Both the position numbers and the translations under genes were made by a program. The notes below the pieces were generated by a model. The model did not search any database and had not been told where the DNA came from. It worked only from the letters and a program-made list of their open reading frames with translations. From assembly GCA_004296455.1 (NCBI GenBank), contig AP018280.1, forward strand, positions 5,630,794-5,694,793: DNA of 64,000 nucleotides, read 5' to 3'. The first letter of the stretch is position 1; each line of letters begins with the position of its first letter. This document shows, piece after piece, positions 1 through 41,402 of this stretch. The DNA is from Calothrix sp. NIES-4101. GTDB taxonomy: Bacteria; Cyanobacteriota; Cyanobacteriia; Cyanobacteriales; Nostocaceae.

Positions 1-193
1 AAAAATCTACATTTGCATGAACAATTGGATAAGCAATTGCGGAGTTTTGAAAAAAGTTTTTGAGATTAATCCCAGATGCTGCTAGAGATTCTTCATAAGC
101 TTCGTGGCAGATTTTTAAAACATTGGCGAAATAGACAACACCTGCGGCATCGGTATCTTGAAACCGAATGGTACGATGATACGTGAAAGACAT
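1..193 (-). CDS. Hotdog acyl-CoA thioesterase, probable 1,4-dihydroxy-2-naphthoyl-CoA hydrolase (3' part cut off by window edge)
   Basis: Translating the reverse strand from an ATG at 193 gives about 64 residues with the 4-hydroxybenzoyl-CoA-thioesterase-type motif [14 protein letters not shown] at residues 11-24. The Asp at 15 matches the catalytic Asp of this hotdog family. In cyanobacteria the closest well-studied members are the DHNA-CoA thioesterases of phylloquinone (vitamin K1) synthesis, which release 1,4-dihydroxy-2-naphthoate for prenylation. That assignment is by family; a general acyl-CoA thioesterase of the YbgC type is the alternative. The start is well placed because the conserved motif begins 10 residues in. 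The C-terminal half lies outside the window. Confidence 0.8.
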
Positions 194-275
194 TTTGCTG
201 ACAGTAATATTTGTGCATGAGTAAATATATATCAATCCTAAATCATTTGTGCTGCCATAGCTTTGGCAGAGAAGA

Positions 276-308
276 ATATCCCCAACTTCTCCAAGAAATC
301 GGGGATAT
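276..308 (-). terminator. Hairpin terminator-like element after the HopA1 gene
   Basis: ATATCCCC (276-283) pairs with GGGGATAT (301-308), and an inner CTTCT/AGAA pairing gives a nearly continuous stem. It lies 40 bp beyond the stop of the HopA1-family gene and before the start of the thioesterase gene, so it probably ends the HopA1 transcript. There is no clean U-run. The same arm sequence recurs in two other hairpins in this window. Confidence 0.5.
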
Positions 309-347
309 GACACATAAATAAAAATGGATTGCTAAATTTACATCAAT

Positions 348-1439
348 CTAACTCAAAGGTAAGTAAATATCTTCAGAATTAGGATTCAAATAGGGGCGTT
401 GTAAATCGATACCAAACCTGACAAAATAATCATGAATTGCTTCCATTTTTTCATCAGCAGAATTGCCATATTTTTGCCAAGTTTCAATTATTGCATTGGC
501 AACTATCTGACAGCGATTCATCCCAAAACTTTCTTGAGCGACAAATTTTTGCTTTGGTTCTTCAGCTAACCCCAATCCTGGTGCTAAAAATTTTGTAAAT
601 AGGGGGATTTCGCTGTGGAAGTGAGATTGATGTTGTAAATAAATAACTTGTAAAACTTGACGAACAGTTAAATAGTCTTGCTTTTCAAAAGAAAGTACGC
701 AAGCATCGTAACGTCCAAAAGCCGCAGGATGGCACAGAACTTGAAAGCTAAAGGGAATTTCCACCGCATTCAATTCTGATGTGATTGCATCCATTAATGC
801 GATCGCACCAGATGATGTAGTGTTAAAGTATATTCTCCCTAATCCCAAATCCACATTACTCTGCTGTTTTTCTTGCCCAACATTACTAATGGCAATGTAA
901 AATCCATTCTGCAAGCGATTTTTGGGCATTCTTACCGCAATGCGATCGCCTCTTTTGGCAATTGGGGCATCAGGTACAAGATGCTTATCACTCTCAGCAT
1001 ACATCGTTAAGCCACCTTTGACGACAGCCAGGCTCGCATCCGGTTCTCTTCGCAATACTTCCCAATCACCATCAAAATAACCTGTACCACAATTGCGATC
1101 GTCTAATTCTGTATAAAATTCTTTATCAATTCCCAATATCGAATTATTCTCCAAATTGTGGTGTAGCGAATAAACTTTGGAAACACGTAAAGGGGTATTT
1201 GTCAAGCTATTGCGTAGTGATGCGTTGAAATAAATGCCGTAAATAAAGTTTCGTAATAATAAAACGCGATATTTTTGTTGCAATTGCGGAGGATTACGCT
1301 CAAATCTTGCCACAACATCGGCAGGTAAAGCAAAAGGCTGATAATTCGGGTGACGAATACAAAAATTTGCCTCAATTTGAATGTCGCTAGTAATGTTTTG
1401 TAGCGTTTCCGTGAGTTTGTCAGTAGTCTCTAGCATCAT
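348..1439 (-). CDS. HopA1-family protein (class V lanthipeptide lyase-like component)
   Basis: A 363-residue protein that reads as the HopA1 family, named from a Pseudomonas syringae type III effector and related in fold to phosphothreonine lyases. Recognisable blocks are YGIYFN (67-72), KGGLTMY (141-147), RIYFN (202-206), LAPGLGLAEEP (285-295) and ESFGMNRC (303-310). The start is an ATG-ATG pair; the first is used here. In class V lanthipeptide synthesis (lexapeptide, pristinin) a HopA1-like protein works with a stand-alone APH-like kinase to dehydrate Ser/Thr and form rings. Here the kinase gene lies 297 bp upstream on the same strand, which supports a shared pathway. No signal peptide or membrane segment is seen, so it should be cytoplasmic. 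The family call is firm; the RiPP role is inferred from the pairing. Confidence 0.78.
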   Translation of the reverse strand: MMLETTDKLTETLQNITSDIQIEANFCIRHPNYQPFALPADVVARFERNPPQLQQKYRVLLLRNFIYGIYFNASLRNSLTNTPLRVSKVYSLHHNLENNSILGIDKEFYTELDDRNCGTGYFDGDWEVLRREPDASLAVVKGGLTMYAESDKHLVPDAPIAKRGDRIAVRMPKNRLQNGFYIAISNVGQEKQQSNVDLGLGRIYFNTTSSGAIALMDAITSELNAVEIPFSFQVLCHPAAFGRYDACVLSFEKQDYLTVRQVLQVIYLQHQSHFHSEIPLFTKFLAPGLGLAEEPKQKFVAQESFGMNRCQIVANAIIETWQKYGNSADEKMEAIHDYFVRFGIDLQRPYLNPNSEDIYLPLS

Positions 1440-1736
1440 GAGAACACAAATAGGGAGTAATGACTTTTAGGTGGGAGACGCGGAAAGGAAAAAGTGATAC
1501 CAATTTGAAAAAAGAATGCGACAGATGAAGTTTGTAGAAGAGACACGTTAGCAAAACTCCTCTGTTCGCTCTTAGTGTTCCCGAAGGGTAAGAGCCTATA
1601 TCGCGTCTCAGATTCTGGATGTGTTGCAAACATTTTTTGAATCGGTATGAGTGAGAGATATGGGAAAAATGAGAGAGGGAGAATAAATATTCCTTCTGCT
1701 TGCATATCTCCATCTATTTTTCCCCTCCCCACTTCT
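1440..1736 (-). repeat. Intergenic spacer between the kinase and HopA1 genes, with nested inverted repeats
   Basis: This 297-bp stretch has no convincing gene. It holds nested palindromes: GAGACACG pairs with CGCGTCTC (one mismatch), and inside it GCTCTTA pairs with TAAGAGC. The composition resembles the short intergenic repeats of Nostocales. The structure lies between two genes read on the minus strand and could attenuate or stabilise a joint transcript, or be an inserted repeat. Two overlapping reading frames here are not credible proteins. Confidence 0.4.
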
Positions 1737-2972
1737 TTAACATCCCCGCAACCGAGGTTTTTCGTAATAAATCCGCAACAAATTTTGTTCGCGTGCGGTT
1801 TTGGGAACAGTCTGTAACTTTTGTAGTGGTTCGATAATTTCGCTTTCGGAAACACCAAATACGGTTTCTACCGATTGCTGCGGCATTGTTAACAATGTCT
1901 TGGCAACTTGTAATATATTGATGCCGACATTGTCAAAATGTTGACAGCACTTGAGGTTTTGTTCGATTTGGTTAATTAGCGCTAACCCAGCAAACTGAAC
2001 TACGCGCAAAATAAAGTCTTGACGGTACTGCAAAATCATCGGAAATGCTTGCAAATAAGCGCGAGTTAATGCCAAAATCGCAGGCTGAAGTCTCTCCACG
2101 GGAATTACTGCTAACTGGAGGGATTCTTCCCATGTCAACGTGGAATCTATAACCATACTTTCGAGCCAAATCCGCAAATAATCCGCGATTAAGCTACCCA
2201 AATCAAATGCAGGCTCTCCCCAGGATGCTGCTTCCCAATCGATTAACCTCACCAAACAATTATCTAGATTTTGCCAACGCGAATGTACCAGAATATTCTC
2301 TAATTTCAAATCATTGTGCGTTAAGCAGCAAGGATTCCACTCATATGCTAAATCCGCGATGGCACTTTCTAAACTCTCATAGCACTGGTGGAAAATATAA
2401 AACTGTAAAGCTTCTGTGGGAATACTACCAAAAATTTCTGGCGAAACTGCACTAACCCCCTGTGCTGGATTGCAAAACTGATAGCGAATGACTCCAGTAG
2501 GAGAAGTCGCCATAAAATTGCGATATTCTCGGCGCGAGTAGGTTGTGCGATGCAATGTAGCCAAACTATTCCCGATTGCAGTGGCTATTGCTTCCGGGAA
2601 AATGCTGTTATCCCCATAAAAACTTTTTAATTCCTCATATTCACTGAGGTAATTACGCACCAGTATCGAATTTACCTCATCAAAATGCACTACTGATGTG
2701 CCAATTTCGGAAATATTTCCCAAAACTGGAAACTGTTGCACCAACTGATGTAACAGCCATTCATTAAAGAATTCGTGGGGTATCCCGTCAACTCCAAAAC
2801 AGCGCTCCTGTTTCACCAGCAGCTTGCGATTTCCAGTCAGAGTCACAAGAAAATTACGATTCTTACTACTCTGAGGTAATTCAGAATCTGCCGACGCGCC
2901 ATCTTCAGAGCTACACAGCCCTGCTTCTTGCAGGTACTGGATAACATTATGCGAAGACAGTGAAGAAACCAT
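1737..2972 (-). CDS. APH-like phosphotransferase (class V lanthipeptide kinase-like)
   Basis: A 411-residue aminoglycoside-phosphotransferase-fold kinase. The catalytic loop THNDLKLEN has His219, Asp221 and Asn226; the metal-binding motif is IDWEAASWGEPAFDLGSL, with Asp245; Lys54 in LLVKQE is the likely ATP-anchoring lysine. The N-terminal 40 residues look extra to the kinase core. A GGAAG ribosome-binding site sits 7 bases before the ATG. It lies directly upstream of a HopA1-family gene on the same strand. In class V lanthipeptide clusters a kinase of this type phosphorylates precursor Ser/Thr and the HopA1-like partner eliminates the phosphate. The third class V component (LanX-like) and a precursor are not recognised here. 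A small-molecule kinase role cannot be excluded. Confidence 0.8.
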   Translation of the reverse strand: MVSSLSSHNVIQYLQEAGLCSSEDGASADSELPQSSKNRNFLVTLTGNRKLLVKQERCFGVDGIPHEFFNEWLLHQLVQQFPVLGNISEIGTSVVHFDEVNSILVRNYLSEYEELKSFYGDNSIFPEAIATAIGNSLATLHRTTYSRREYRNFMATSPTGVIRYQFCNPAQGVSAVSPEIFGSIPTEALQFYIFHQCYESLESAIADLAYEWNPCCLTHNDLKLENILVHSRWQNLDNCLVRLIDWEAASWGEPAFDLGSLIADYLRIWLESMVIDSTLTWEESLQLAVIPVERLQPAILALTRAYLQAFPMILQYRQDFILRVVQFAGLALINQIEQNLKCCQHFDNVGINILQVAKTLLTMPQQSVETVFGVSESEIIEPLQKLQTVPKTAREQNLLRIYYEKPRLRGC

Positions 2973-3720
2973 GTATTACTTCCTAGCTCGTATGCTTTTA
3001 AAACAGCTTTCTCGGTAAAGGTTCGGATTCAGTATTTTTAGTTAGACAGTAACTAGATAGAAATATTGATTCGCAATAGCCACTATCTAGTAATATCCGA
3101 TTTGTGCAAGGAATACTTGCCAAAATGGCAATATAGACCTTCACCATCCCTTTAAATTATGCTTATCTAAACCTTTAAATCTTTAAATATCTTAGGGTAT
3201 TTGCGTAGATATTTATGCTGATTAGCAGTTTAGAAATGTTCATGACAATCACATTTATAGCAAATAGTTTTTACTACCTCATTCGTAAACCTATCTATTA
3301 ATTTCAGTCAACACATACAAAGTACATAAAAACTTGATGCAAGTCCGGATAAGTATGATGATTTTTATGCACTGAATTTCTTGTTGTTTAAAAGACTCCA
3401 TAAGTATTCCAGTATAAGGTTTTGAGACACTAATAAAAATTTATATGTATGTAATTTTGACATCTTATTTTAATTGCAATTAAAGCTCATATCATTTTTC
3501 TGTAGCTTTAGCAACAATTTTCATATGATGGCAAAAAAATCATTATATCAATAATAATCTGCTAATTCTTTTTGCAAATATTTCTAATTATTGTGAAAAA
3601 ATAGCAACTAAATTATGCATGATTAGTATAGCTGGATAATAACCTGCTACTTGGGGAATCAGCCTTATTTAAAAATATATAGGTAGGAGAATCAAAGCAT
3701 TTAGTCTGCTGGCAAAGCCA
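2973..3720. other. AT-rich non-coding stretch upstream of the kinase gene
   Basis: About 750 bp with no protein-like frame over 60 codons. It should hold the promoter of the kinase/HopA1 genes. A minus-strand frame of 49 codons (2998-3147) ends 25 bp before the kinase start and is discussed as a weak precursor candidate. Apart from short AT-rich repeats I see nothing else. Confidence 0.4.
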
Positions 3721-3874: not shown

Positions 3875-4189
3875 CTAGCGAACCAACAATCGACTTAAAA
3901 TCAGTACCAGTGTCACCATTCCCAAACCCGTCATTAATCCTGCCGGCATCAACTTGCGTGTTTTTTTGAGTCTAATGGCAAAAATCACAACTAATACAGC
4001 AGTAATCACACTAGCAAAAACAAAGGCAAATTCTAGTCCTTGAACTTGCAAAAAGCCAGCAATAACGAGTAACGAACCGCTAATCGTACCACTAATTAAC
4101 GAAATTTTACTTTGGGATTGAACGTAGCCAATAATGCCACCAATCATAGCCAGAATTCCGTAAGCGAAAGTAGCGACAATACTAAACAT
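3875..4189 (-). CDS. TMEM14/UPF0136-family small membrane protein
   Basis: About 104 residues with four hydrophobic segments, glycine-rich in the first (FAYGILAMIGGIIGYV) and third, and a basic KKTRK loop before the last. This matches the TMEM14 family, which includes plant FAX fatty-acid exporters of the plastid envelope. A role in lipid or fatty-acid movement across a cyanobacterial membrane follows only by family. The ATG at 4189 is chosen; a TTG four codons upstream (4201) is the alternative. A strong terminator follows, and the divergent DUF815 gene starts about 165 bp away. Confidence 0.75.
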   Translation of the reverse strand: MFSIVATFAYGILAMIGGIIGYVQSQSKISLISGTISGSLLVIAGFLQVQGLEFAFVFASVITAVLVVIFAIRLKKTRKLMPAGLMTGLGMVTLVLILSRLLVR

Positions 4190-4354
4190 ATTTAGTGACA
4201 ACCTATGGAGAAAATAAGAAGGAGTGAGGAGTGAGGAGTGTTGAGTGTTGAATACTGAATGTTAATTTAAGAAAGTAGAGAATTATGGAAGCATTAAAAA
4301 CAGAAAATATTCAACTCCCAATTTTCCCACTCAACACCCAGCACGATTAAACAG

Positions 4355-5761
4355 ATGACGGATAGTCAAACAATTGCCCGGATACAATTTCTGCAACGCC
4401 AAGCCGCCTCCCTCTTACTCTATCAATCTGTCTTGAAAGGGCAAACAGGAAGCGCATTTTTGGGGCTGTTGCAAGCAATACGTTATAAAGATGCAGATGC
4501 CAGAGGTTGTTTGGAGGCTTACGGGAATTACTTCCAATCCCTAGCATCACAAAATCAAAATTGGGAAGAATATTTAGTTTTGCAAATTCTCCGGGATGAC
4601 AATCCTTTTTCCCGTGCCGCCCAAAAATATGACTTTGCCGAATTGCCGCCAGCCCTAATTGCGGCGACTCAACACGATTTGCAAATTATGCGATCGCTTT
4701 ATGAATGTAGTAGTGCATTATTAAGTGAATGGGTGCAGCATGTTGCCCATTTACCCGTATCGCCGATTGTGTGGTACATCGAGCCGCCAGAAATGTCTAC
4801 TCTAGAAGCAGAATACATTGCTTCCCTACAACAATTAGAACATTGGACGGATGTGGTTGAGGATTTAGCGACTTACTATCGTCGGTGTGGTACAGGCTTA
4901 TTTGCAGAATATAGGGCTTTGCGCTGGCAAGCGGGCAAGTTTATTGGTATTCCCCATCCCGATACAATTAGATTGGGGGAACTGGTGGGTTATGAGTCGC
5001 AAAAAGAGACTTTGCTCAAAAATACAGAATTTTTATTATCGGGACAAACAGCATTGAATGTATTGCTTTACGGTAGTCGTGGTGCTGGTAAATCGTCCTT
5101 GGTAAAAGCTTTATTGAATGAGAATTCTCATTCCGCCAATAGTAACTCTCCAGGAAACTCAAATAGTGAGAGTTTTGCTTCCCGTGGTTTGCGGTTAATT
5201 GAAGTTGCCAAATCAGAACTCAAAGACTTACCACTAATTGTTGAAAAACTCAGCGAATTGTCACCAAAATTCATTATTTTTGTGGATGACTTATCTTTTG
5301 AAGAAGATGACGACGCATTCAAAGCCTTGAAGGTTGTCCTAGAAGGTAGTTTAACATCGCGATCGCCCAATGTTGTCGTTTATGCAACATCAAATCGTCG
5401 CCACCTCATCCGCGAATTTTTTAGCGAGCGCCCTGCACCAAGAGATAATGATGAAGTGCAAGCTTGGGACACCATGCAAGAAAAACTGTCCTTTAGCGAT
5501 CGCTTTGGTTTAACTTTAACATTTGCACCCGCAGACCAAAATACTTACCTAGAAATAGTTCGTCACCTTGCCAAGCAAGCAGAAATTGCGATCGACATAG
5601 AGGAGCTAGAGTATAAAGCTTTACAATGGGCAACTCGTCATAATGGGCGATCGGGAAGAACTGCACGACAATTTGTAGATTACCTAAAAGCTGATATAGC
5701 AGTATTTGGCTGGAAAAATTCAACCTCTAATCCTAGTGAGTTATCTGTGCAAAAAAAATAA
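4355..5761 (+). CDS. DUF815-type AAA+ ATPase
   Basis: A 468-residue protein with an all-alpha N-terminal region (1-200) and a P-loop ATPase domain. Walker A is GSRGAGKS (240-247), Walker B is FIIFVDDLS (306-314) and a sensor-like ATSNRRHL follows at 344-351. The order, and the later arginine-rich GRSGRTARQF segment, match the DUF815 family of predicted AAA+ ATPases, which is widespread but uncharacterised. A polar Ser/Asn-rich insert sits at about 256-276, just after Walker A. No membrane segment or signal is visible. The next gene on the same strand begins after a 450-bp gap, so it is probably transcribed alone. Confidence 0.8.
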   Translation: MTDSQTIARIQFLQRQAASLLLYQSVLKGQTGSAFLGLLQAIRYKDADARGCLEAYGNYFQSLASQNQNWEEYLVLQILRDDNPFSRAAQKYDFAELPPALIAATQHDLQIMRSLYECSSALLSEWVQHVAHLPVSPIVWYIEPPEMSTLEAEYIASLQQLEHWTDVVEDLATYYRRCGTGLFAEYRALRWQAGKFIGIPHPDTIRLGELVGYESQKETLLKNTEFLLSGQTALNVLLYGSRGAGKSSLVKALLNENSHSANSNSPGNSNSESFASRGLRLIEVAKSELKDLPLIVEKLSELSPKFIIFVDDLSFEEDDDAFKALKVVLEGSLTSRSPNVVVYATSNRRHLIREFFSERPAPRDNDEVQAWDTMQEKLSFSDRFGLTLTFAPADQNTYLEIVRHLAKQAEIAIDIEELEYKALQWATRHNGRSGRTARQFVDYLKADIAVFGWKNSTSNPSELSVQKK

Positions 5762-6211: not shown

Positions 6212-7543
6212 ATGCAATCACCAACATTCAGCAATCGATTTATTTTAATAATAGTAGCTTTCGGGGTGAGTTTTGGTCTTAGCCTTGTCCTTCATTGGAA
6301 TTTTAATCAAGCCTTCCTGACAGCTTTGATTACTGCGCCATCTACTTATTTAGCGGCTTTTTTTGTAGATAAACGCCATCGAAATTATGAGATGTTGGTG
6401 CTGGATTCTTTATACAAACGAATTCGTGAACTCGAAGGTGTAAAATCTCATGTTGTTAGCGAAATTAATCAACTAGAAAACCATCGTAATTCCCTATATT
6501 CTGAATCAAATCAACTCAAAAATCAAATAGGCGATCGACGTAGTCAACGTGATAGTCTCAATCGTGAACTTAGTAGCTATATCACAGAGCAAAGACAGCT
6601 AGAATTGATTATAGAGCAATTAAAAAATGAAATAAATAGTCTGGAAAAAAGTAAGATAGAACTCAATAACTCCTTCGTCGCCGAGAAACGCAAACAAGAG
6701 TTAAATGTTAGCGTTTCCCGCGCAGAAATTACTCAGTTACAAATACAAATTAACGAATTTAAAAAAGAAAAAGAAGAATTAGAAAATAATTTAACCTTAC
6801 TCGATAGACTCAAACCCCAGCTAGAAGCAAAGCTGCACGAGTTACGCATACAAATGCAACAACTTGAAGAGCAAGAACAGCAGAAAAACGAACTCATATC
6901 TGCAAAAACCAGCGAACGTAAAAATCTAGAAACTAAAATTAAAAGCCTCCAAGATAAACTAAAATCTAAGCAAGAAGAATTAAAACATTTACAAGAGCAG
7001 ATATCTTTATTACAAGATGAACGTAACTTGTTGCAAACCCAAGTATGGGAACTATTACAACAGATGGAAAACCTCAATCCCGAAGAGGTAGAAAATGAAC
7101 ATATAGATAATATTAGTCACGATATTTTAGAAGAAAATGTAGAATTATTTCCTTTCTCCGAATTAATTGAAAATCTAGATTCACACGCTAAAAATATAAA
7201 CTATTTAGGTAACTCACATGTAAATAATCAATCAAGTGAAAACTTAGACAATGAATGGCATGAGTTTGTATATCAACTATCTAGTCACGAACTGCAAGTA
7301 TTAAAAGCAATTTTAGAACAAGCAAATCCTAATCCGAACATTAAGCAAATAGCAGAGGCAAATATTACAATGCCGAATCTTCTCATTGACTCAATCAACG
7401 AAATTGCCAGCAATACAATCGGTGAACTAATTATCAATACCACTTCTGAATTTCCATCTTTTGAACAAGAACATATGGCCAATATTCAAAAAGTTATAGA
7501 AAGCTATGAACAAATAATTACTCAAAGGTCATCATCAAACTAA
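6212..7543 (+). CDS. Membrane-anchored coiled-coil protein with C-terminal TerB-C-like domain
   Basis: A 443-residue protein in three parts. Two hydrophobic segments near the N-terminus (about 9-27 and 33-52) anchor it, a long heptad-rich coiled coil runs from about 65 to 290, and an acidic C-terminal domain follows. The last ~90 residues (LSSHELQVLKAILEQ, then an INEIASNTIGELII block) resemble the TerB-C domain of predicted tellurite-resistance-associated proteins, where the domain is linked to metal sensing and DNA-processing ATPases. The gene downstream is a BREX-type ATPase, the partner expected for such a domain. The membrane-plus-coil form suggests a scaffold. The TerB-C call is by eye and moderate. 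Confidence 0.6.
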   Translation: MQSPTFSNRFILIIVAFGVSFGLSLVLHWNFNQAFLTALITAPSTYLAAFFVDKRHRNYEMLVLDSLYKRIRELEGVKSHVVSEINQLENHRNSLYSESNQLKNQIGDRRSQRDSLNRELSSYITEQRQLELIIEQLKNEINSLEKSKIELNNSFVAEKRKQELNVSVSRAEITQLQIQINEFKKEKEELENNLTLLDRLKPQLEAKLHELRIQMQQLEEQEQQKNELISAKTSERKNLETKIKSLQDKLKSKQEELKHLQEQISLLQDERNLLQTQVWELLQQMENLNPEEVENEHIDNISHDILEENVELFPFSELIENLDSHAKNINYLGNSHVNNQSSENLDNEWHEFVYQLSSHELQVLKAILEQANPNPNIKQIAEANITMPNLLIDSINEIASNTIGELIINTTSEFPSFEQEHMANIQKVIESYEQIITQRSSSN

Positions 7544-7794
7544 AATAACTTAAATTTTGAAAACAATTCAAGTAAATCTTTCAAAATATTGTAAAATATT
7601 TGTATTCATATTATATATAAAAGACATAAGTAAGTAGATAGGTTTCATTAAATATAAAACCCGAAGACAGTGTATTTAGCTTGCGGAGGGTATTGGTTTT
7701 GATCGTAACCACGTACTTGTATCAAACTATATATCAAACTATAAAAGATATAGATGCAAACCTCTACGGTTAAAATAAACTGAGGTTCACCAAT

Positions 7795-9123
7795 ATGGTA
7801 AAGGTTAAACTCTCCAAAAAAATATCTACTGCCTTAATTAATTCCCTTGGTGCTGGGGTAGTACCAAGAGAAGGTGTTGAACATATCGCAGTCGGAAGAG
7901 AAAAAGAACTAAAAAGCCTCATTCAAAATCTTGACGATATTGCGGAAGGAGTTGCGGCATTCCGCTTTATTATTGGTAATTACGGTTCAGGTAAAAGCTT
8001 TATGCTGCAACTAATTAGAAACCGAGCCATGGAAGAGGGTTTCGTCGTTGCAGATGCCGATTTATCATCAGAAAGACGATTAGCTGGAAGTAATAATGAA
8101 GGACTAGCCACTTATCGAGAATTAATGAGTCATCTCTCTACAAAAACTCGTCCCGATGGTGGCGCTTTAATTTCAATTTTAGAAGGTTGGATCAATAAAA
8201 TTCAACAAGAAGTTGCCAAAGATACGGGAATGCGCCCTAATGATGAAGGTTTTGATGACAAAGTTGAAGCAAGAATACGCGAAGTTGTTCAATATATCGA
8301 AGACTTAGTGCATGGGTTTGATTTTGGCAATGTAATTAGTGCTTATTGGCGAGGGTATAGACAAGATGATGACAATTTGAAAAACGCTGCGCTTCGGTGG
8401 TTACGAGGTGAATTTAACACCAAAATTGAAGCAAAACAAGCTTTAGGTGTGCGCGTGATTATTGATGATGATAGTTGGTATGATTACATCAAAATCTTGG
8501 CAAAATTTGTGGCGGAAATTGGCTATAAAGGGTTGATAATTATGCTCGATGAAGCCGTAAATTTATATCAAATTCCTACTACTGTCACCCGTGAAAAAAA
8601 CTATAATCGCCTACTCGGTATTTTCAATGACACCATGCAATGTAAAGCTGAAAATTTAGGCTTTTTAATTGGTGGTACAACTAAATTTTTAGAAGATCAG
8701 AATCGGGGACTTTTCTCAGATCAAGCATGGCGCAGACGTACTAAAGAAAGTCGTTTTGCGAGTCAAGCAGGAGTACAAGAATTTCATGGCCCTGTAATTC
8801 GGCTAAATCCATTAAGTGAGGAAGAAATTCTTTCTTTGTTGCAGAGATTAGCAGAAATTCATGCATCCAATTATGGTAACAAAGTTTTAGCAAATCGTGA
8901 ATGTAAAGAATTTGTCCAAGAAATTGTGACTCGTTTGGGTGCAGATGCATTATTAACACCGGGTGAAATTGTCCGTGATTTCATTAGTGTTTTAAATATT
9001 ATTCATCAAAATGCAAATATTAAATTTGGTGACATAATTCATGGAGATAAATTTAAACCTACTCTTGTGGGTAGTAATCCCGAAGTTAATACTGAAAATG
9101 ATGTTGCCGAGTTTAGTTTATAG
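7795..9123 (+). CDS. BREX-type ATP-binding protein (BrxC/BrxD, DUF2791 P-loop family)
   Basis: A 442-residue P-loop ATPase. Walker A is GNYGSGKS (61-68), Walker B is LIIMLDEA (247-254), with a sensor-like GGTTKFLED (293-301) and an arginine cluster RRR (313-315). The pattern matches the DUF2791 family, which includes BrxD of BREX phage-defence systems and ATPases linked to TerB-C proteins in predicted DNA-processing modules. A GAGG site lies 9 bases before the ATG. It follows the TerB-C-like gene on the same strand after 251 bp. No helicase, methyltransferase, PglZ or nuclease gene is adjacent, so this is not a full BREX locus. The ATPase assignment is firm; a defence role is inference. Confidence 0.8.
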   Translation: MVKVKLSKKISTALINSLGAGVVPREGVEHIAVGREKELKSLIQNLDDIAEGVAAFRFIIGNYGSGKSFMLQLIRNRAMEEGFVVADADLSSERRLAGSNNEGLATYRELMSHLSTKTRPDGGALISILEGWINKIQQEVAKDTGMRPNDEGFDDKVEARIREVVQYIEDLVHGFDFGNVISAYWRGYRQDDDNLKNAALRWLRGEFNTKIEAKQALGVRVIIDDDSWYDYIKILAKFVAEIGYKGLIIMLDEAVNLYQIPTTVTREKNYNRLLGIFNDTMQCKAENLGFLIGGTTKFLEDQNRGLFSDQAWRRRTKESRFASQAGVQEFHGPVIRLNPLSEEEILSLLQRLAEIHASNYGNKVLANRECKEFVQEIVTRLGADALLTPGEIVRDFISVLNIIHQNANIKFGDIIHGDKFKPTLVGSNPEVNTENDVAEFSL

Positions 9124-40560: not shown

Positions 40561-40591
40561 CTATGCCTCGTAGATTGTAGCTAGGTTTTCA

Positions 40592-40736
40592 TGAATTTGT
40601 CGGCGGGCATTCTGACTGACAAGGTGCAGTTTTTTCTGTGATTGTCCTTGATTACAGTTGCGGGACAGCGCCGGACTTACACCGAACTTTCCCCGTTACC
40701 TCTAGTGACTGATACCCACTAGAACCGAAGCATTGA
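40592..40736 (-). promoter_or_regulatory. Cobalamin (adenosylcobalamin) riboswitch
   Basis: On the minus strand the B12 box reads GCTGTCCCGCAACTGTAA (40669 down to 40652). It is preceded by GGGGAAAGTTCGGTGTAAGT and followed towards the gene by GTCAGAATGCCCGCCG, the typical 3' end of the aptamer. It lies about 30 bp before the DUF1636 start, so it should control that gene, probably at translation. The ends of the aptamer are approximate. Confidence 0.93.
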
Positions 40737-41402
40737 TAATATAACACGACTGGGGTTAATAGTGATGATATTTTTATCCGCGTTACCAGTAGCAATTATT
40801 TGATTGTTGGGATTATGGGGATTATGAGCGATCGCATAAATTGCTGCTGTGCGCCTCGCAAAATGATTGTATTTTCCCAACTTTTTATGGATATGTTGAA
40901 AACAAAGATTAAAAACAAGTCTTTGGATAGATGTATTATTGCATTTTTTATGGAATTTAAAATTAGAAGATCACAATCATTAGCTTCAACAATAAACCTG
41001 AAGACGTAACTCGATTTCTAAACTGTTACTATTCGTTAAATTAATCAAATAATTCTATAGAAAAGTGCTTTGCTGACTTCTTTATTAGTCGGGGACGTTG
41101 CAGTTTTTATTACCCTCGAATCCCATTTTTCCGGAAAGTATAAATTGATTCTTGAAGACAATATCGTTACATGTCGGCAAATAAAAGCAGATAGTAGAGA
41201 TTTTAGAAATGAAAAAATAAATCAAACTTGTTTACTTCCAACTCTATCTGTCACGAAAGCTCTATCCACATCATATATAGATAACTAAGGCAAAAGTAAA
41301 TCAAATGTCAACCAAAAACTAAATATACGAAGGCAATTAATTAATAAGCATTTGTCTATATCTGTACCTGTATCGATAGAATATTCCACAAAAGGAGCAA
41401 AA
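40737..41402. other. Non-coding gap upstream of riboswitch and the next gene
   Basis: About 665 bp. It should hold the promoter of the riboswitch-controlled gene on the minus strand and that of the unknown gene at 41403. Two short plus-strand frames of about 70 codons look random. A partial copy of the hairpin-family arm (AGTCGGGGA) occurs near 41089. Confidence 0.4.

What the first reader, a model, noticed from the sequence alone, without database searches (positions are those of the whole stretch)
348..2972. HopA1-family and APH-like kinase pair: candidate stand-alone class V lanthipeptide machinery in a cyanobacterium
Seen: a HopA1-family protein (348-1439) lies just downstream of an APH-fold kinase (1737-2972) with intact HND and DWE motifs, on the same strand. 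Known: class V lanthipeptides (lexapeptide, pristinin) are made by separate enzymes including an APH-like kinase and a HopA1-like protein. Inference: this pair may modify Ser/Thr in an unknown peptide. A LanX-like gene, transporter, protease and obvious precursor are missing, so the substrate may be encoded elsewhere, or the pair may modify another target.
Basis: partly seen in the sequence, partly recalled or inferred. Interest (0 to 1): 0.75.

Follow-up and report, generated by a model that had tools for sequence, protein, structure and literature searches.

The report
Heterocyst-linked kinase with disabled lyase partner
Nearly all sampled heterocyst-forming cyanobacteria carry this kinase and lyase-like protein pair, which looks borrowed from peptide-antibiotic enzymes but has lost the lyase's key residue and shares a DNA element with genes used in making nitrogen-fixing cells.

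Summary
The two genes are real: 348-1439 is a HopA1/LanY homologue (PF17914, 197.6 bits) and 1737-2972 an APH-type kinase with intact catalytic motifs. The class V reading is only half right. Nostocaceae carry two kinds of this pair. 'Type B', also present once in this genome, sits beside double-glycine leader peptides (46 of 53 loci) and fits the published cyanobacterial RiPP family. 'Type A', the window's kind, differs: 0 of 33 loci have such leaders within about 8 kb; it is one clade in each tree; 210 of 217 family genomes have a kinase scoring better than any sampled outside the family. None of 110 type A HopA1 proteins has the lyase's essential lysine (Q in 99); 53 of 55 type B keep it. 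The kinase ends in a conserved RLRGC tail that type B lacks. A palindrome, TGCCANNNTGGCA, lies before 66 of 80 type A kinases (0 of 55 type B), at 17 of 20 hetP loci and before heterocyst-specific NsiR8 in three genomes. Best reading: a kinase with a pseudo-lyase partner, acting under nitrogen starvation or in heterocyst development. Substrate and regulator are unknown.

The parts
348..1439 (-). HopA1/LanY-like protein, 363 aa, predicted pseudo-lyase
   Evidence: PF17914 197.6 bits; fold match to LxmY 9dk3_B E 5.2e-13 (model pLDDT 74.6, pTM 0.53); dN/dS about 0.11-0.14 against two congeners
741..743 (-). codon of Gln233, in place of the catalytic Lys of LanY (CaoY K219)
   Evidence: alignment to LxmY and to 110 type A / 55 type B proteins
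834..836 (-). codon of Arg202, matches CaoY R187 (kept)
   Evidence: R in 100 of 110 type A, 49 of 55 type B
711..713 (-). codon of Arg243, matches CaoY R229 (kept)
   Evidence: R in 109 of 110 type A, 51 of 55 type B
690..692 (-). codon of Ser250, in place of CaoY Y236
   Evidence: Y in 71 of 110 type A, 49 of 55 type B
1737..2972 (-). APH-fold kinase, 411 aa, catalytic residues K54, E71, H219, N220, D221, N226, D245 present
   Evidence: APH 47.9 bits, LxmK 69.4 bits below cut-off, residue counts
1740..1832 (-). C-terminal extension of the kinase ending RIYYEKPRLRGC, found in type A only
   Evidence: exactly RLRGC in 72 of 79 complete kinases (78 named plus window) and 31 of 33 unnamed; in none of the 55 type B tails listed
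3118..3130 (-). palindrome TGCCATTTTGGCA, operator-like element
   Evidence: exact in 66 of 80 loci (79 named plus window) and 31 of 33 unnamed, 0 of 55 type B
3087..3096 (-). ATATTACTAG, -10-like element 21 nt after the palindrome
   Evidence: same 21-nt spacing in 68 of 80 loci
1..313 (-). start of a 4HBT-family thioesterase gene downstream of the pair (cut by the window edge)
   Evidence: PF13279 67 bits on the whole ORF in the flank; relatives found in 44 of 79 named loci
3875..4201 (-). TMEM14 family protein upstream of the pair (context, not claimed as a part of the mechanism)
   Evidence: PF03647 75.8 bits; 43 of 79 named loci
4355..5761 (+). DUF815 ATPase, divergent neighbour (context)
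   Evidence: PF05673 304.6 bits; 47 of 79 named loci

Best explanation
The pair descends from a class V-like RiPP dehydratase (kinase plus phospho-Ser/Thr lyase) and has become a core gene pair of heterocyst-forming cyanobacteria. The kinase should still transfer phosphate to Ser/Thr of a peptide or protein. The HopA1-like partner has lost the base needed for elimination but keeps the two arginines; it probably still binds the kinase and the phosphorylated substrate, so the product would stay phosphorylated instead of being dehydrated. The kinase's C-terminal RLRGC tail probably binds another partner or the substrate. Transcription is probably switched on during nitrogen starvation or heterocyst development by an unidentified regulator that binds TGCCANNNTGGCA, the element also found at hetP and NsiR8. 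Shown by computation: ancestry, loss of the lysine, the tail, the taxonomic range in the samples, the shared palindrome. Inferred: kinase activity, complex formation, lack of elimination, heterocyst expression, the role of the tail.
For: 0 of 110 type A HopA1 proteins have Lys at 233, 53 of 55 type B do; CaoY K219A lost elimination but not phosphorylation, R187A nearly so (PMC9486802, text read). Both genes are under purifying selection, dN/dS 0.05-0.26 over 8 species pairs. Type A is one clade in the HopA1 tree (SH-aLRT 98) and in the kinase tree (100). 210 of 217 Nostocaceae genomes have a kinase at E below 1e-140 (my count), better than the best hit from other families in the order sample, 4.2e-140. 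Leaders: 0 of 33 type A loci, 46 of 53 type B loci. Palindrome: 66 of 80 exact plus 12 with one mismatch; 31 of 33 unnamed; 0 of 55 type B. hetP loci: 21 exact sites in 20 loci, 17 of 20 loci hit (HetP family confirmed for the own-genome protein, NF037966), against 5 sites outside type A promoters in 1.32 Mb. NsiR8: 29 nt lie between palindrome and Rfam 5' end in 3 genomes; NsiR8 is HetR-dependent and heterocyst-specific (PMC4734099, passages). Palindrome plus -10 pattern: 49 matches (both strands) in 8 genomes, 1 for the reversed control.
Against: No expression or biochemical data. The three NsiR8 loci were found with the palindrome pattern, so they do not show how many NsiR8 genes have it, and none of 13 own-genome palindrome loci carries NsiR8. 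3 of 20 hetP loci lack the site, and one of 10 lower-scoring hetP-family loci has one. The palindrome also occurs elsewhere, some copies inside coding genes and one 513 nt before a cas6 gene, and its regulator is unknown; the reversed-pattern control in three genomes of the window's genus was 3, 14 and 9 against 15, 25 and 18 sites. In type A a TTTAAA element also lies on the other side of the palindrome, so the promoter's direction is not certain. 7 of 112 type A kinases, Nostoc-type by the names available, have Asn for the metal-binding Asp245, and one has HNE, so activity may not be universal. The lysine may be replaced by another base (K56, K141 and K283 are invariant in type A, but are common in type B too). 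The kinase structure model was poor (pLDDT 54). Some Nostocaceae lack the pair: G015 has type B only; G209 and G212 had no match. Rows are related and the named and unnamed sets overlap, so the Fisher values overstate independence.
Confidence: 0.5

Rival explanations
1. Active dehydratase acting in trans: the lyase still eliminates phosphate with another base, and the pair makes Dha/Dhb in a peptide encoded elsewhere.
For: Kinase motifs and two lyase arginines are kept; the HopA1 protein is under purifying selection; the fold matches LxmY. One relative outside the family has Arg at the lysine position (L230) and two type B proteins have Glu, so the position is not absolutely fixed.
Against: 0 of 110 keep the lysine. 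7 of 9 genomes with only type A have no leader of the known cyanobacterial family, 2 have one weak hit. Comparing the window's ORFs of 30 aa or more with 79 named loci showed no recurrent short gene of its own beside the pair (short ORFs absent from the window would be missed); the conserved stretch upstream of the kinase has indels that break any frame (part of the output was cut).
Confidence: 0.2
2. Scaffold or regulator: neither enzyme activity matters; the complex works as a binding device, for example through the RLRGC tail, or regulates another kinase-like protein.
For: Lyase lysine lost in all 110 type A proteins compared; metal-binding Asp245 lost in 7 of 112 kinases; conserved C-terminal tail in type A only; in 16 genomes the tail motif turned up elsewhere only as a partial copy beside the kinase in G022 and as hits at E above 0.06.
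Against: Kinase K54, E71, H219 and N220 are kept in 112 of 112 and D221 in 111 of 112, which a pure scaffold would not need.
Confidence: 0.17
3. Small-molecule or housekeeping kinase tied to its neighbours (thioesterase, TMEM14, DUF815), with no link to heterocysts.
For: These neighbours recur in 43-47 of 79 named loci. The APH fold often phosphorylates small molecules (family knowledge). The kinase also passes Pfam's cut-off for Choline_kinase, 31.2 bits against 29.
Against: In the genomes sampled the pair was not found outside the heterocyst-forming family at this score, although such neighbours are general genes (recalled; their range was not tested). No NCBIfam metabolite-kinase model passed its cut-off, and the best NCBIfam model is LxmK. 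The promoter element is shared with hetP.
Confidence: 0.1

Closest known systems
LxmK/LxmY and CaoK/CaoY (class V lanthipeptide dehydratase)
   Same: Same two families, adjacent genes, HopA1 match to LxmY by sequence and fold; kinase motifs kept.
   Different: Catalytic Lys of the lyase lost; no known precursor, LanC, LanD, C39 peptidase or ABC exporter among the neighbours scanned; kinase has an extra tail; kinase scores far below the LxmK cut-off.
Cyanobacterial 'Family 1A' HopA1-phosphotransferase RiPP clusters (Eyles 2021, PMC8153245, passages read)
   Same: My type B loci fit its description: pair beside several double-glycine leader peptides (not compared with its data sets); nearest relatives of type A.
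   Different: Type A lacks precursors, is one clade, keeps no lyase lysine and has its own promoter element. I saw no separate mention of such a subgroup in the passages read.
hetC-hetP locus and NsiR8 of heterocyst-forming cyanobacteria (PMC10986499, PMC4192349, PMC4734099, passages)
   Same: Share the TGCCANNNTGGCA element and a similar distance to a -10-like box.
   Different: Different gene functions; HetR's own site is GGGnnnnnCCC, seen upstream of only 1 of 80 type A kinases.
OspF-family phosphothreonine lyases
   Same: Mechanistic relatives of LanY according to PMC9486802.
   Different: Not compared by sequence here; the lysine they need is absent in type A.

Membership tests
Class V lanthipeptide machinery | HopA1-like LanY next to APH-like LanK | tested here: met
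Class V lanthipeptide machinery | LanY catalytic lysine (CaoY K219) | tested here: not met
   Gln233 in the window; Lys in 0 of 110 type A
Class V lanthipeptide machinery | LanK curated score (NF038156) | tested here: not met
   69.4 bits against cut-off 315
Class V lanthipeptide machinery | Precursor peptide nearby | tested here: not met
   0 of 33 loci with the known cyanobacterial leader; other precursor kinds cannot be excluded
Class V lanthipeptide machinery | LanD or LanC, peptidase, ABC exporter nearby | tested here: not met
   none among the 15 neighbours scanned; an AI-2E family transporter is present
Class V lanthipeptide machinery | LanX | tested here: inconclusive
   no kinase-fold gene among the 15 scanned neighbours; no LanX profile was searched
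Class V lanthipeptide machinery | Dehydration of a peptide | not testable with these tools
   needs biochemistry
Cyanobacterial Family 1A RiPP pair (type B) | Double-glycine leader peptides in the locus | tested here: not met
   0 of 33 against 46 of 53
Cyanobacterial Family 1A RiPP pair (type B) | Kinase and HopA1 homologous to the family | tested here: met
   44 percent identity between the two kinases of this genome; trees
Heterocyst-development gene | Restricted to and near-universal in heterocyst formers | tested here: met
   210 of 217 family genomes at E below 1e-140; best from other families sampled 4.2e-140 and aligned only to residues 1-381. That the family equals heterocyst formers is recalled from the names
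Heterocyst-development gene | Shares a promoter element with known heterocyst genes | tested here: met
   NsiR8 loci were found by the pattern itself
Heterocyst-development gene | HetR/nitrogen-dependent expression or mutant phenotype | not testable with these tools
   no expression data at hand

The most novel reading that the evidence does not exclude
The pair phosphorylates a peptide or protein signal of heterocyst development, possibly the unknown cargo of the peptidase-exporter HetC: a RiPP dehydratase turned into a developmental phospho-switch.
Probability: 0.13. Interest if true: 0.92.

Novelty: new variant of a known kind. Interest (0 to 1): 0.68.

Why it matters
In the papers seen here, kinase-lyase pairs of this sort belong to RiPP biosynthesis and HopA1 alone to a bacterial effector. 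A clade-wide version with a disabled lyase would show a peptide-antibiotic enzyme recruited into the cell biology of a multicellular bacterium. The substrate of HetC is an open question (PMC10986499, passages), and this gives a new testable candidate for how such a signal might be handled. The palindrome TGCCANNNTGGCA ties hetP, NsiR8 and this pair together and points to a regulator still to be found.

Tried and rejected
Upstream small ORF (2998-3147) as precursor: its DNA is conserved across species, but with indels that break the frame, so it is read as a regulatory stretch (part of that output was cut). Leader peptides in trans: searched in 20 genomes, not found in 7 of 9 type-A-only genomes, one weak hit each in the other two. 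RLRGC tail as a shared motif of other proteins: in 16 genomes only a partial copy beside the kinase in G022 and hits at E above 0.06. SigJ J-Box: consensus GGGaAtacT in PMC6495340 does not fit the conserved GGATATTAG (my comparison by eye). NtcA site upstream: 45 of 80 against a mean of 11.3 in simple shuffles, but at scattered distances from the palindrome, so not used. DIF1 motif TCCGGA: 13 of 80 against 3.2, not followed. HetR site: 1 of 80, not enriched. Small secreted HGSGTR peptide as a target of the same element: site upstream in the own genome and two congeners and in G021 (401 nt), one-mismatch site in G019; exact in only 2 of 15 loci read, so not counted as a shared target; one search had missed the G021 case. 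AlphaFold of the kinase: too poor to use. VIA-align library was not available.

No earlier report: library searches for HopA1 with Nostoc (0 papers), HopA1 with cyanobacteria (8), HopA1/lanthipeptide/kinase (8 papers, 7 listed), and heterocyst/hetP/hetC/HopA1/phosphotransferase terms (19 papers, 10 listed) showed no study of this pair in the titles and abstract starts listed; subscription papers are not held. Papers: PMC9486802 parts 1-2 of 5 read, plus one passage; PMC8153245, PMC7794033, PMC10880069, PMC12141560, PMC12291118, PMC6495340, PMC4192349, PMC10986499, PMC4133259, PMC4734099 passages only; the rest, listings only.
Full report
WHAT IS THERE. 348-1439 is a HopA1-family protein and 1737-2972 an APH-fold kinase. 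NCBIfam's nearest model for the kinase is LxmK of class V lanthipeptides, but far below its cut-off. The HopA1 protein matches LxmY of the LxmKY dehydratase by sequence (9dk1_B, E 3e-06) and by fold (9dk3_B, E 5.2e-13; model pLDDT 74.6, pTM 0.53).

TWO KINDS OF PAIR. HopA1 occurs in 41 of 60 related genomes: all 36 of the window's own family including its own genome, and 5 of 24 from other families, one of these only as a fragment. One search lists 91 matches. Apart from the window's own, 88 HopA1 ORFs were read, and all 88 have a kinase beside them (in L064 the kinase is split into two ORFs). They fall into two kinds by kinase score against the window: 33 type A (480 bits or more) and 55 type B. 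Type B has the leader family MAxIxISxLxxxGSELFxDSESFLNEL..GG (consensus) in 46 of 53 loci; type A in 0 of 33, with about 8 kb read on each side where the contig allowed. A looser pattern had given 40 of 55 type B pairs and 7 of 33 type A; the seven look like chance peptides. Type B fits the published cyanobacterial Family 1A (PMC8153245, passages: 570 peptides in 183 clusters). The window's genome has one pair of each kind. Among 16 family genomes searched for the leader (part of 20), all 7 that hold a type B pair have it; of 9 with type A alone, 7 have none and 2 have a single weak hit (33.6 and 25.2 bits). Four genomes of other families had none.

TYPE A IS A CORE PAIR OF ONE FAMILY. In 217 genomes of the family, 210 have a kinase match below E 1e-140; the other seven are G015 (type B only), G208, G141 (72 percent complete), G211, G118 (54 percent complete), G209 and G212 (my count from its rows). 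In the order sample of 388 genomes the best match from another family was E 4.2e-140 and aligned to residues 1-381 only; a phylum sample of 244 gave nothing better outside the family. 79 named loci are from genera such as Nostoc, Calothrix, Scytonema, Anabaena, Nodularia and Richelia; that these form heterocysts is recalled. Type A is one clade in a HopA1 tree (SH-aLRT 98, 113 rows) and in a kinase tree (100, 115 rows, tail left out of the type A rows); both are quick trees without bootstrap. The named and unnamed sets overlap in part (identical rows), so counts are not independent.

THE LYASE HAS LOST ITS BASE. In CaoY, K219A loses elimination and R187A nearly so, R229Q weakens it, Y236 is the conserved tyrosine (PMC9486802, text read). 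In LxmY the same residues appear with the same spacing (R, +32 K, +10 R, +7 Y), and the lysine aligns with Gln233 of the window. Over 110 type A proteins the position is Q 99, H 6, Y 3, E 2 and never K; in 55 type B it is K 53, E 2. The arginines are kept (100 and 109 of 110). The tyrosine is kept in 71 of 110 and is Ser in the window. One further type A locus from G206 has Glu there, with the tail and the thioesterase neighbour. Neighbouring lineages just outside type A still have Lys (L232-L234), one has Arg (L230). dN/dS is 0.11-0.16 for both genes against two congeners, and 0.05-0.26 in six other pairs: the protein is kept, not decaying.

THE KINASE KEEPS ITS SITE AND HAS A TAIL. K54, E71, H219 and N220 are present in 112 of 112 and D221 in 111; D245 is Asn in 7, Nostoc-type by the names available. 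After the kinase domain comes a variable linker and a conserved end, consensus LxRIYYEKTRLRGC. Exactly RLRGC ends 72 of 79 complete kinases (78 named plus window) and 31 of 33 unnamed. Type B lacks it. No other protein with the motif stood out in 16 genomes.

A SHARED ELEMENT. Upstream of type A kinases lies TGCCANNNTGGCA: exact in 66 of 80 (12 more with one mismatch) and in 31 of 33 unnamed (2 more with one mismatch), against 0 of 55 type B (1 with one mismatch). It lies 21 nt before an ATNTTANTAG box in 68 of 80. In the window it is 3118-3130 on the - strand. The own genome and two congeners hold 58 such sites. Reading 44 of them in 40 stretches led to a locus with a C39-peptidase ABC exporter that also has a weak cNMP-domain match below cut-off (HetC-like), a HetP protein (NF037966, 120 bits) and two palindromes. 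In 20 family genomes, the best hetP locus has an exact palindrome in 17 (21 sites); of 10 lower-scoring hetP-family loci one (L313) has a site. L037-L121 hold 36 sites in 1.32 Mb, 31 of them the type A promoters, 5 elsewhere. At 14 of 21 hetP sites a -10-like box starts 20-21 nt after the palindrome on one strand; the box forms were chosen by eye after seeing the sequences. With a TANNNT box in the pattern, 8 genomes gave 49 matches on the two strands against 1 for the reversed control; a palindrome with boxes on both sides counts twice. In three of these loci 29 nt lie between the palindrome and NsiR8 (Rfam RF02593), an sRNA shown to be HetR-dependent and specific to developing heterocysts (PMC4734099, passages). 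These three were found with the pattern, so they are a link, not a rate; none of the 13 own-genome loci had NsiR8. HetR's own site is different (PMC4192349) and is not enriched here.

HOW IT PROBABLY WORKS. LxmK and LxmY form one complex in which the substrate moves from kinase to lyase site (PMC12141560, passages). Type A most likely keeps this complex, phosphorylates Ser/Thr, and stops there, with the HopA1-like partner holding the phosphorylated chain by its arginines. An element shared with hetP and NsiR8 suggests action in nitrogen-starved or differentiating cells. HetC is an exporter needed for heterocysts whose cargo is unknown and beside which no double-glycine gene was found (PMC10986499, passages); a link to this pair is a guess. 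The main doubts are that there is no biochemistry or expression data, that the regulator is unknown, that promoter direction is uncertain, and that a few kinases have lost a metal ligand.

NOVELTY. The families and the RiPP pair are known. A precursor-less, lyase-dead, family-wide version with its own promoter element was not mentioned in the searches and passages named in Tried and rejected. I rate it a new variant of a known kind.

Noticed in passing
G000:C1:6748317-6752399 (L035, L001): Second kinase-HopA1 pair of the same genome, with lysine intact and four double-glycine leader peptides downstream: an ordinary Family 1A-type RiPP cluster.
   Followed up: yes
L044, L047, L060, L089, L095, just downstream of HopA1: A short HetP-like protein (97-102 aa) lies 15-177 nt after HopA1 on the same strand in 5 of 53 type B loci (motif search), 0 of 33 type A; RiPP clusters and the heterocyst commitment family meet here.
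   Followed up: partly
L341, L348, L354, L355, L358, L364, L366, L263, L270: A recurrent transcript-like sequence (AAGATAAACGACTTCAAGGG in most; L348 diverges) after the same palindrome, no clear ORF; no Rfam match in the eight of these loci scanned, L270 not scanned: candidate new small RNA.
   Followed up: partly
HopA1 at L054 (8002-9096), L073 (6648-7844), L121 (8010-9119): Type B pairs whose kinases read HNN for HND; in L054 and L121 the HopA1 has Glu for the lysine. L054 and L073 hold a second pair in tandem that is not on the list of odd active sites.
   Followed up: no
window 6212-9123 (+): TerB-C protein followed by a BrxC/D-type ATPase that matches PADLOC SngB with 592.5 bits: possible defence genes.
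   Followed up: no
window 40585-40744 (-): Cobalamin riboswitch, RF00174, 53.5 bits.
   Followed up: no
L323-L337: Small proteins ending GGPDSxHGSGTR or similar, matched in 15 of 20 family genomes (one of them only as a fragment); the palindrome lies about 400-470 nt upstream in 2 of 15 loci and a one-mismatch copy in a third. Reminiscent of heterocyst inhibitor peptides (recalled).
   Followed up: partly
G022:C10:25970-26002: Partial copy of the RLRGC tail coding sequence just after the type A kinase stop.
   Followed up: no
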